From: Trematomus loennbergii
Taxonomy: Eukaryota > Chordata > Actinopteri > Perciformes > Nototheniidae
Assembly: GCA_012861695.1 (NCBI GenBank)
Contig: JAAOOA010000002.1
Coordinates: 19,196,303 to 19,260,302 of the forward strand
Direction of reading: 5' to 3'
Length of the DNA stretch: 64,000 nt
Positions within the stretch are counted from its first letter, which is position 1; each line of letters starts with the position of its first letter. The translations under genes were made by a program, and so were the position numbers. Below are positions 23,138-54,198 of the stretch, in pieces. The notes beneath the pieces were generated by a model. The model ran no database searches, was not told where the DNA came from, and saw only the letters and a program-made list of their open reading frames with translations.

Positions 23138-23970
23138 ATGATGTTAGTATGCAAATATAAAAATCTAGGTGTAGTCATGGACCCTGACCTGAGTTTCAAA
23201 AGTCACATTAAAACAGTTACTAAGTCAGCCTACTATCACCTTAAGAATATATCGAGGACTAAAAGAATAATGTCTCAGCAGGATTTGGAAAAACTTGCTT
23301 TTATCTTCAGTAGACTGGACTACTGTAATGGTGTCTTTACAGGTCTCACTAAAAAATCTATTAGAAAGTTGCAGCTAATTCAGAACGCTGCTGCTCGAGT
23401 CCTCACTAACACTAAGAAAGTGGATCACATCACACCTGTTCTGAAGTCTTAACACTGGCTTCCTGTGTGTCAAAGAATTGATTTCAAAATACTGCTGCTG
23501 GTTTATAAAGCATTGAATGGTTTAGGCCCAAAATACATGTCTGACCTACTGCTAAATTATGAACCATCCAGAACTCTCAGGTCTTCAGGGACTGGTCAGC
23601 TTTCTGTCCCTAGAGTCAGAACTAAACATGGAGAAGCAGCGTTCAATTATTATGCTCCAAATATCTGGAACAAACTCCCAGAAACCTGCCGGTCCGCTGC
23701 AACTCTTACTACTTTTAAATCCAGGCTGAAGACTTTTCTTTTTTCCGCTGCTTTTAATTGATATATTCATATCTTACACGGCACTGTAACTTTTATTGAT
23801 GTACCTTTGTTATTCATGTTTTTTATTATCTTTGCTTTTAAATGAGTGTTTTTAAATGTCATTTTTAAAATATGTTTCTTAATGCTCCTAATGTCTTTCA
23901 TTTTTACAAAGCACTTTGAATTGCCTTGTGTTGAAAGGTTTTATAAAAAACTTGCCTTGCCTTGCCTTTG
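23138..23970 (+). mobile_element. L2-like LINE 3' fragment, reverse transcriptase C-terminal part
   Basis: One frame over 23,138-23,761 (one internal TAA near 23,450) encodes the region downstream of the catalytic motifs in L2/CR1-type reverse transcriptases: an NLGVVMDPDLSF block, an RLDYCNGVFTGL block, NAAARVLT and the HWLPV..RIDFKILLLVYKALNG block. The 3' end has GCACTTTGAATTGCC and a TTGCC repeat tail. The 5' part is missing, the usual truncation of LINE insertions. The left border of the triplicated unit (23,559) lies inside this LINE. Confidence 0.85.
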
Positions 23971-26283
23971 ACATCATCATAGTATATAATGTCCCAAAAT
24001 ATGAAAGAAATCTTCATCAATCATCAGTATATGTCCAACAAAGTCATAGTATAGTATTTTAATTATAATATGAAAAAGGTCATAGTATAGTTTGTTTGAA
24101 ATTATGAAATATGTCAAAATATAGTATAGTTTGATGAATATAAGTAATATTTTATCATGTTTATCATGTCATAGTATATTATGTCGAAAAAGTCAAGAAA
24201 AAGGACAGTGTACAGTCTGTAGAAAATATGAAAAAGTCATAACATAGAACGCTGACAATTTCATTGTATAGTACGTCGAACATTATCATTTGAATTCACT
24301 TCTAGCCAGACGTTGACTTCAAAAATGTTAGTAACAGCATCAATTAAAATAACAACAATATAATTAGGAAACTGTTAACATAATATACAGATGTCAATTA
24401 TCATCATGTTAAATAAGTGAAATATCATAGATATGATAAATATTTATATCGTAAAAAGTAACTAAAAATGTTGAAAGTAATATTGCATTGTCCCTTTTTT
24501 TCTAATATGGTGCAGACCTCATTTTTTACATTAGCAGGATAGAAGTAAAAGCAGTGCTCTCTTTATTTAAACTGCAATAAAATATGTCACTTTCACCAAT
24601 GAATAATAGTGTTAAATAAATGTAACACAATATCAATGAAAATAATCGTGTTTATCATTTTGGCCAGATCTGTGGCTTTTAAAGCTTCTGAGTGGCGTAA
24701 TTTAGTTACAGCTGTTTTAATATTGTTATTCTTTTGCTTCTGGCGTTTATGCTATGCTAAGCTAACTGGGTCTCAACTCCATCTGCACATCACACAAAGA
24801 CATGACAGTCATATTGATTTTCATTTTTTAATTCTTGGTATGAAATCAAACAACAAACCAGTAAACTCAGCATGGGGGTCCACGGCTCAATTATTCTCTG
24901 TGGCCCTTTAGTGGTATAATCTGATCAAAATCAAAACACCCAATCTTCCACCTCTTCAAATAAATTCTTGACACAGTTGCTGGATTTCAACAAAACCTTT
25001 TAATTTCACTGGTACTGTTTATAAAATCAGCGAGTCTGCTTTGATGCCAACTTAAACATGGTGTGTGATTTGTGTTTGTGTATGCGAGTTGGGATTTGTG
25101 ATTGCGTGTTGTTTAAAGTGTGCTGTGTATGTGTTGGTACTGTGATGTTGCGTGTAATCTGTGAGTGTGAATGTCAGATTGCTTAATAAGGCAACATGCA
25201 GTCATCAGTTTCCATTGGCCTCAAAGTAAAAAACACAAACCTGCTCCAGACACAAACACACACACACTATGCTGGCTGACCCGGTTCTATATTAACGCAC
25301 ACACATATATTTATATAAACACACACATACAGTGCATACAGACACACACACCAAGGCTGGGCAGACAAGCAGTGAAAGGTGGCATCACACTGACTGAGAG
25401 GAATAGGGAATCCTCTGATTGGCTGAGACAGTTGATGGGCGGGAGCTCCCGAACAGCCAGGGTACAGACTTGTTAGTGTGAAATAAAAACGACCCTAAAA
25501 AACAACTACACATCCCAGAATTCAAGCTGTACATATAACTACACAAAAAGCGGATCCATGATAAACATTTAAAAAAAACGTTAATTCTGCTCTCTTTGCA
25601 GACTGACTGCCTCTTTGAATCATCATTTTTGTTATCACAGAACTAACACACTAAAGTCCACACGGTGAGGGTTTCTCCTGATGGCATGCAAACCAGTTTC
25701 ACAAAGACTAAAAAGCAACTACACGATAACAAGAGGATGTCAGTATCAGCTGCTCATATTTCCCCTTAAGCACTCTTACTTTGAAAACAACATCCCACAG
25801 ATTCTGAAGCTATATGTTTCATTGAGAGAAATGCTCAAGCCATGATGTTTGAACGGCCACCAAATGAATTTGCTCTAATTGTATTGTACAGCATTTTAAG
25901 CACTTTTTTTGTGCCACTGGTGAAAAAGGAGACCATGTCCTGAATTCCCATGAACCAATCAGAATTTCGGAATGAAAAACTGGTTTTCTTCTCACTTTAA
26001 ATTAGCTCATTGCTTGTTTTTGAGAAATTCCTTGAACATTTGAAGTTAAATTACTTGTGAAATAACTGCTCTTGTTTTCTCATGCATCACATGAACACAA
26101 TTCAGGTTTACGCTCTAACAGCTGAGAAAAATGAGCATTGTACAATGTCCTACAGTTTAAACCTGTTTGCCCAGTGTGTGTGTCTGCACTGGCATCTGCG
26201 GTATGTACTGTATGTGTGTATGCATGTGTACAATAAAGGTGTGTCTCTTTTGTTTGTGTGTTTGTGGGTGAGGTTACACCAAG

Positions 26284-54000: not shown

Positions 54001-54198
54001 GATTTATTGATATTAGTAGCATCTGTGCTTTCTTTTTCTACAACTCAGTTAAATAAATAGATGGATGAAGTGCACCCTGATAAGTAAGAGCAGAACCATC
54101 AAGCGATGTCTGTGCTCATTTATGTTTAAGCACTGCTTTATGTTGTTAGATTTCTTTGTAAGTAAGAGAAGACACTAGAAAAGAGATTCCTTTTACAT
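48030..54198 (+). repeat. Tandem unit 3
   Basis: Begins at the same LINE-internal point as unit 2 and ends TTTTACAT, after which unique sncg sequence starts (TCTGCAGCTC). It holds the functional positions of sncg exons 4 and 5. About 125 bp at 53,940-54,064 is absent from units 1 and 2. Unit 3 is likely the ancestral right-hand copy, since it is continuous with the gene. Confidence 0.9.

What the first reader, a model, noticed from the sequence alone, without database searches (positions are those of the whole stretch)
23559..54198. Tandem triplication of the 3' end of the synuclein gene
Three head-to-tail units (23,559-30,851; 30,852-48,029; 48,030-54,198) share the same start point (inside an L2-like LINE) and the same end point (inside sncg intron 3). 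Both junctions read TTTTACATGAACC. The outer flanks (AAATTATGAACC on the left, TTTTACATTCTG on the right) share only 'AT', pointing to a microhomology-type event. Each unit contains the last two coding exons and 3' UTR of sncg. Units 2 and 3 are nearly identical and unit 1 is more diverged, so the second duplication is young. Without spliced data an annotator could easily miss these 42-nt and 9-nt exons.
Basis: seen in the sequence. Interest (0 to 1): 0.78.

Follow-up and report, generated by a model that had tools for sequence, protein, structure and literature searches.

The report
Fish synuclein gene tail triplicated
In this fish genome the last three coding exons of a gamma-synuclein gene lie in three head-to-tail copies whose middle copy looks like a patchwork of the outer two, which fits an old small duplication later enlarged by an unequal chromosome exchange; it is a clear example of an ordinary process, probably without effect on the protein.

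Summary
The repeat is real in the sequence and correct to the base: three head-to-tail units (23559-30851, 30852-48029, 48030-54198) with identical junctions. The gene is a fish sncgb on the minus strand. Unit 3 completes the gene; unit 2's three coding stretches are identical to it; unit 1's 42-nt exon reads 40 nt, its intron is shortened, and LINE sequence lies in its 3' UTR. New result: unit 2 is a mosaic, unit-3-like over most of its length and unit-1-like in its last ~230 bp (substitutions: 0 of 20,000 shuffles as strong; small indels alone do not show it). With the identical junctions, this is what unequal crossing over between two existing copies makes, so the third unit needs no second breakage. 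The same two steps are described for stickleback myosin genes. A false third unit from assembly cannot be excluded without reads. The downstream units are most likely inert gene fragments. New member of a known kind.

The parts
23559..30851 (.). unit 1 (X), left copy
30852..48029 (.). unit 2, mosaic middle copy, with an 11.1-kb insertion
48030..54198 (.). unit 3 (Y), next to the rest of the gene
58356..58476 (-). sncgb coding exon 1 (121 nt, starts with ATG), outside the units
54932..54973 (-). sncgb coding exon 2 (42 nt), outside the units
54359..54486 (-). sncgb coding exon 3 (128 nt), outside the units
53207..53224 (-). unit 3 cassette exon, 18 nt, EEPVYE
52234..52275 (-). unit 3 42-nt exon, GEYGGREQGGEGGE
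51451..51459 (-). unit 3 terminal exon, coding part GY-stop; 3' UTR follows
36030..36047 (-). unit 2 cassette exon, identical to unit 3
35063..35104 (-). unit 2 42-nt exon, identical to unit 3
34289..34297 (-). unit 2 terminal exon, coding part, identical to unit 3
29989..30006 (-). unit 1 cassette exon, same 18 nt; about 750 bp of the following intron missing
29775..29814 (-). unit 1 counterpart of the 42-nt exon, 40 nt, frame lost
28892..28906 (-). unit 1 counterpart of the terminal exon, 6 additional nt
26278..28606 (-). sequence found in unit 1 only, with a LINE reverse transcriptase fragment (ORF 28227-28715)
36662..47798 (+). insertion in unit 2 with nested transposon-like sequence
53783..53854 (.). 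switch interval (unit 3 coordinates) between u3-like and u1-like parts of unit 2
53939..54064 (.). 126-bp block present in unit 3 only
30839..30858 (+). junction of units 1 and 2
48017..48036 (+). junction of units 2 and 3, same sequence

Best explanation
A segment of some 6-7 kb, reaching from inside a LINE to intron 3 of sncgb, was first duplicated in tandem by one non-homologous join (2-bp overlap AT). The left copy (X) was cut off from coding exons 1-3 and decayed. The right copy (Y) stayed the working end of the gene. Later a mispaired X and Y crossed over near the right end of the unit, giving X - (Y-left/X-right) - Y, i.e. units 1, 2 and 3. An 11.1-kb transposon-like insertion entered unit 2 in the crossover interval, after or at the exchange. 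The gene works through unit 3's exons, with an 18-nt cassette exon giving 119- and 113-aa forms. Units 2 and 1 are downstream gene fragments, most likely without function. Shown: unit structure, identical junctions, mosaic in substitutions, exon states in this assembly. Inferred: order of events, mechanism, splicing, lack of function.
For: Identical junctions at 30852 and 48030. Substitutions: 89 u2=u3 against 12 u2=u1 left of the break, 1 against 10 right of it; best break between u3 53783 and 53854, 0 of 20,000 shuffles as strong. Without the dense cluster at 53918-53936: 89:12 against 0:8 (break chosen from the data). With indels counted as well: 157 characters, break 53838/53854, 0 of 20,000. 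The 126-bp block is missing from u1 and u2 only. Distances: left u2-u3 0.63%, u1-u3 2.35%; right u1-u2 1.72%, u2-u3 5.58%. The direction (Y-left, X-right) is that predicted for the NAHR duplication product in stickleback MYH3C (section 9 read). The LINE frame is unbroken across the left end, so the outer flank is the older arrangement. Unit 3's exons complete an open 113/119-aa sncgb with GT-AG introns; unit 1's lose the frame.
Against: No reads, second assembly or related fish genome could be examined. The right-end signal rests on about 232 aligned bases. Indels taken alone do not show the switch: best break 53354/53363, reached by 2,480 of 20,000 shuffles, and five u3-only indels lie left of the break at 53204-53820. 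40 isolated 1-bp gaps, 33 in one unit only and 19 of 40 in homopolymers of three or more, hint at leftover sequencing error, so unit 1's frame loss may be partly an error. With no outgroup, u2=u1 sites are equally sites private to u3. The insertion falling within the ~70-bp switch interval is a coincidence of about 1% if independent (70 of about 6,200 bases, estimate).
Confidence: 0.64

Rival explanations
1. Only two units exist on a chromosome; the assembly went round the repeat loop twice or placed both haplotypes in a row, so 'unit 2' is an artefact made of the other haplotype's Y-left and X-right.
For: A loop walked twice also gives identical junctions and a Y-left/X-right middle unit. u2-u3 differ by 0.63%, which could be allelic. 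Excess of 1-bp gaps in homopolymers. In three VGP assemblies false duplications were 0.3-2.3% of the assembly, 61-92% of that on the same scaffold (PMC9516828, passages).
Against: No N in the window, while gaps between copies are listed as a mark of false duplication (passage). The 11.1-kb insertion is clean: unit sequence resumes at the next base on its far side (u3 53839/53840), which a false join between two different repeat copies would hardly give.
Confidence: 0.23
2. The triplication arose in one replicative event, or from a plain re-duplication, and gene conversion later made u2 and u3 alike on the left (or u1 and u2 alike on the right).
For: Conversion can also make mosaics; the switch lies at an insertion, where a break could have been repaired from a neighbouring unit. 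The unclear indel pattern would fit patchy conversion.
Against: Needs an additional step and a conversion tract of several kb that ends where a single crossover would. A re-duplication without homology would have to hit the same junction base twice.
Confidence: 0.09
3. The downstream units act as alternative 3' ends or spare exons of sncgb (alternative terminal exons or extended tail).
For: The 18-nt and 42-nt exons are both phase 0-0; the exons of units 3 and 2 in a row would read in frame (139 aa). Zebrafish sncgb is alternatively spliced into two C-termini (passage in PMC4663547).
Against: The transcript would have to skip unit 3's terminal exon and cross about 15 kb including the 11.1-kb insertion; unit 2's coding stretches are identical to unit 3's, so an exchange alone changes nothing; unit 1's are out of frame. 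No RNA data.
Confidence: 0.04

Closest known systems
Stickleback MYH3C copy-number expansion (PMC12776057; passages and the whole of section 9 seen)
   Same: First tandem duplication with short microhomology (4-8 bp there), then NAHR between the copies; middle copies have the last copy's sequence on one side and the first copy's on the other; one junction shared by the expanded haplotypes.
   Different: There whole myosin genes and an enhancer are copied, in several haplotypes, with expression data and a proposed adaptive value; here only the 3' end of one gene, one assembly, no sign of use.
Partial-gene tandem duplications with exon shuffling in Drosophila yakuba (PMC5460883; search listing and start of abstract only)
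   Same: By its title, tandem duplication and exon shuffling.
   Different: By its title it reports novel expression patterns; here no expression could be examined.
Teleost sncgb (PMC4663547, passages; relatives)
   Same: N-terminal repeats, EEPVYE cassette (in 3 of 11 proteins fetched) and GEYGG...GGEGGEGY end.
   Different: 3' exons present three times; Arg in place of Met in the 42-nt exon compared with P0001, P0002, P0005, P0015 and P0030.

Membership tests
Teleost gamma-synuclein b (sncgb) | Sequence match to named sncgb proteins over the N-terminal part | tested here: met
   96% identity over 97 aa to a Moronidae 'synuclein, gamma b' (P0001), which carries PF01387
Teleost gamma-synuclein b (sncgb) | Complete open reading frame with canonical splice sites | tested here: met
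   113 and 119 aa, GT-AG introns, using unit 3; splicing itself not shown, no RNA data
Tandem duplication by microhomology-mediated joining | Short overlap at the junction between unrelated flanks | tested here: inconclusive
   2 bp (AT); about 16% chance expectation
NAHR / unequal crossing over product | Further junctions identical to the first | tested here: met
   junctions at 30852 and 48030 identical
NAHR / unequal crossing over product | Middle unit is last-copy-like on the left, first-copy-like on the right | tested here: met
   substitutions; also with indels added, but indels alone do not show it
NAHR / unequal crossing over product | Chromosomes with fewer or more units in the population | not testable with these tools
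   no population or relative genomes; the genome search did not complete
False duplication in assembly | Low read depth, gaps between copies | tested here: inconclusive
   no N in the window; read depth not available
DIRS-type retrotransposon (inside the insertion) | Inverted terminal repeats plus an internal region complementary to their ends | tested here: met
   37204-37372 against 47098-47266 inverted, 95%; 46990-47048 against 47235-47293 inverted, 98%; that this pattern marks DIRS is recalled
DIRS-type retrotransposon (inside the insertion) | Reverse transcriptase and tyrosine recombinase | tested here: inconclusive
   no convincing Pfam match in the ORFs tried; the ORF 37400-38500 matches uninformatively named fish proteins

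The most novel reading that the evidence does not exclude
The tripled 3' end is used: some transcripts skip unit 3's terminal exon and splice on into unit 2, giving a gamma-synuclein with the tail cassette (EEPVYE-GEYGGREQGGEGGE) twice in frame, and the array is polymorphic so that tail length varies between fish.
Probability: 0.03. Interest if true: 0.65.

Novelty: new member of a known kind. Interest (0 to 1): 0.3.

Why it matters
It is a compact worked example of how a copy-number variant can grow: a single non-homologous join, decay of the copy cut off from the gene, then enlargement by crossing over, with the exchange narrowed to about 70 bp and a transposon-like insertion in the same interval. 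It also warns annotators: three sets of very short synuclein exons (18, 42 and 9 coding nt) stand in a row and only one set is next to the rest of the gene.

Tried and rejected
Fourth copy of the unit at 12623-14439: rejected, because it matches only the repeat-rich part (u3 about 49039-51154), ends just before the synuclein 3' UTR sequence and is 5-18% diverged in its pieces; more likely a dispersed element. Rfam (gathering scores) and tRNA scans of the window: 0 matches. Pfam on 18 ORFs (9, 9): only the LINE fragment 28227-28715 passed the curated cut-off. Protein search with the insertion's ORF: 14 relatives, none with a telling name. The search of the window's own genome was sent seven times and never answered, so further loci, relatives and species are open. 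Target-site duplication at the insertion: none of four or more bases seen by eye. My exon join was mis-cut and gave out-of-frame translations; one search is the corrected one. The whole-unit alignment is unreliable across the unit-1-only block (it counts 343 u2=u3 sites), so counts come from the block-wise alignments; between 53204 and 53783 one search has 17 u2=u3 sites, the block-wise alignment 16. Indels alone do not support the switch. Literature: the listings showed no title or abstract start about a duplicated synuclein 3' end in fish; nothing wider was searched for that.

Full report
What is there. The window comes from a fish, probably a percomorph (inferred from the best protein relatives; the species is not known). 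A gamma-synuclein b gene lies on the minus strand: coding exons 58356-58476, 54932-54973 and 54359-54486, then, inside unit 3, an 18-nt exon at 53207-53224, a 42-nt exon at 52234-52275 and a terminal exon whose coding part is 51451-51459. Joined, they read as 113 aa, or 119 aa with the 18-nt exon, without an internal stop and with GT-AG introns. The best relative is a gamma-synuclein b entry of Moronidae, 96% identical over 97 aa.

The three units. Self-comparison gives units 23559-30851, 30852-48029 and 48030-54198, head to tail. Both internal junctions have the same sequence, a join of the right end (intron 3 of sncgb) to the left end (a LINE). The LINE frame runs unbroken across the left end at 23559, and 118 of the 120 relatives listed (of 380 found) align through that point, so the outer left flank is the older arrangement and the junctions are the derived ones. 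The overlap is two bases; about 16% of random joins have as much. The region right of 54198, with coding exons 1-3, shows no second copy in the window at E 1e-20.

State of the copies. Unit 2's 18-nt, 42-nt and 9-nt coding stretches are identical to unit 3's. In unit 1 the 42-nt exon has 40 nt and loses the frame, the terminal exon has six additional nt, about 750 bp of the intron after the 18-nt exon are missing, and about 2.3 kb with a LINE reverse transcriptase fragment (RVT_1, E 1.1e-14) cut into the 3' UTR region. The 5 fetched fish proteins with a GEYGG tail (P0001, P0002, P0005, P0015, P0030) all have the full 14 residues of this exon, so unit 1's state is the derived one. A caution: 40 isolated 1-bp gaps lie among the three units, 33 of them in one unit only, 19 of 40 in homopolymers of three or more although 22% of bases are in such runs. 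Some may be sequencing errors, and the two in unit 1's exon are in G runs.

The mosaic. In 4,679 three-way aligned columns there are 90 sites with u2=u3, 22 with u2=u1, 19 with u1=u3 and one with all three different. They are not spread evenly. In the block from 53204 to the break, 16 of 16 sites of the first two kinds have u2=u3; right of the break 10 have u2=u1 and 1 has u2=u3. A change-point test puts the break between u3 53783 and 53854; 0 of 20,000 shuffles were as strong. With a dense cluster at 53918-53936 left out, the right side is 8 to 0. A 126-bp block of unit 3 (53939-54064) is missing from both others. Pairwise distances agree: left of the break u2-u3 28/4420, u1-u3 104/4420, u1-u2 108/4429; right of it u1-u2 4/232, u1-u3 12/234, u2-u3 13/233. 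Against this, indels taken alone do not show the switch: 45 characters, best break 53354/53363, 2,480 of 20,000 shuffles as strong, with five u3-only indels left of the break in the block from 53204; substitutions and indels together still give the break at 53838/53854 with 0 of 20,000. Without an outgroup a u2=u1 site is also a site private to u3; the inference rests on the sharp shift in which unit is the odd one out.

How it came about. A mispaired crossing over between the left copy X and the right copy Y of a two-unit array gives X, then Y-left/X-right, then Y, with the old junction repeated without new breakage. That is the pattern here. The paper on stickleback MYH3C (passages and section 9 seen) states the same prediction and reports finding it, after a first step with 4-8 bp microhomology. 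From the left-side distances the exchange is about a quarter as old as the first duplication (0.63 against 2.4%); no clock was applied. An 11,137-bp insertion sits in unit 2 at the base that corresponds to u3 53839/53840, within the ~70-bp switch interval. By chance that would happen about once in a hundred (estimate). It could be coincidence, a break at the insertion repaired from the neighbouring unit, or an assembly seam; the clean resumption of unit sequence on its far side speaks against a seam.

What it does. Only unit 3 is next to coding exons 1-3. Units 2 and 1 have no copy of these exons, and to reach unit 2 a transcript must pass unit 3's terminal exon and about 15 kb, including the insertion. 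The simplest reading is that the gene works as in other fish and that the two downstream units are inert fragments; this is inferred, no RNA was available. The exon phases leave open an in-frame double tail (139 aa), which is the novel case; nothing here supports it beyond the phases and the known alternative splicing of zebrafish sncgb (passage).

The main rival. An assembler that walks the repeat loop twice, or strings two haplotypes, would also make identical junctions and a Y-left/X-right middle, and the u2-u3 divergence could be allelic. No read data are at hand, so this keeps somewhat more than one chance in five. The paper on false duplications (passages) gives the tests: read depth, gaps, linked reads. 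There is no N in the window.

Verdict. Observation confirmed with corrections; interpretation partly supported; a well-resolved but ordinary structural variant of a known kind.

Noticed in passing
36662-47798: Nested elements: outer imperfect 21-bp terminal inverted repeats (7 of 2000 random pairs score as high), inside them a DIRS-like arrangement of inverted repeats (37204-37372 / 47098-47266, 46990-47048 / 47235-47293). The ORF 37400-38500 matches 14 proteins, best 97% over 82%.
   Followed up: partly
36605-36661 and 47799-47813: The insertion lies inside the switch interval of unit 2, with three unit-2-only changes just left of it (u3 53808, 53822, 53834); unexplained.
   Followed up: partly
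12623-14439: Dispersed relative (82-95% identical, in pieces) of the repeat-rich part of the units; it ends next to where the synuclein 3' UTR sequence begins in units 2 and 3 (33995 and 51154).
   Followed up: partly
53918-53936: Cluster of six differences within 19 bp, of three kinds (private to u3, u1 and u2), beside the switch interval.
   Followed up: no
7979-8523: Tandem array, period 147, 3.7 copies.
   Followed up: no
55974-56136: (CA)n run of 163 bp in the intron between sncgb coding exons 1 and 2, a likely polymorphic marker.
   Followed up: no
661-1113: SCAN-domain-like fragment, 25.2 bits, below Pfam's cut-off of 27.
   Followed up: no
52234-52275 and 35063-35104: Arg in the 42-nt exon (GEYGGREQ) where 5 fetched relatives have Met; the same nucleotides stand in unit 1, so the change is older than the duplication.
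   Followed up: no
28227-28715: LINE reverse transcriptase frame that begins in the synuclein 3' UTR sequence of unit 1, an accidental fusion frame.
   Followed up: no
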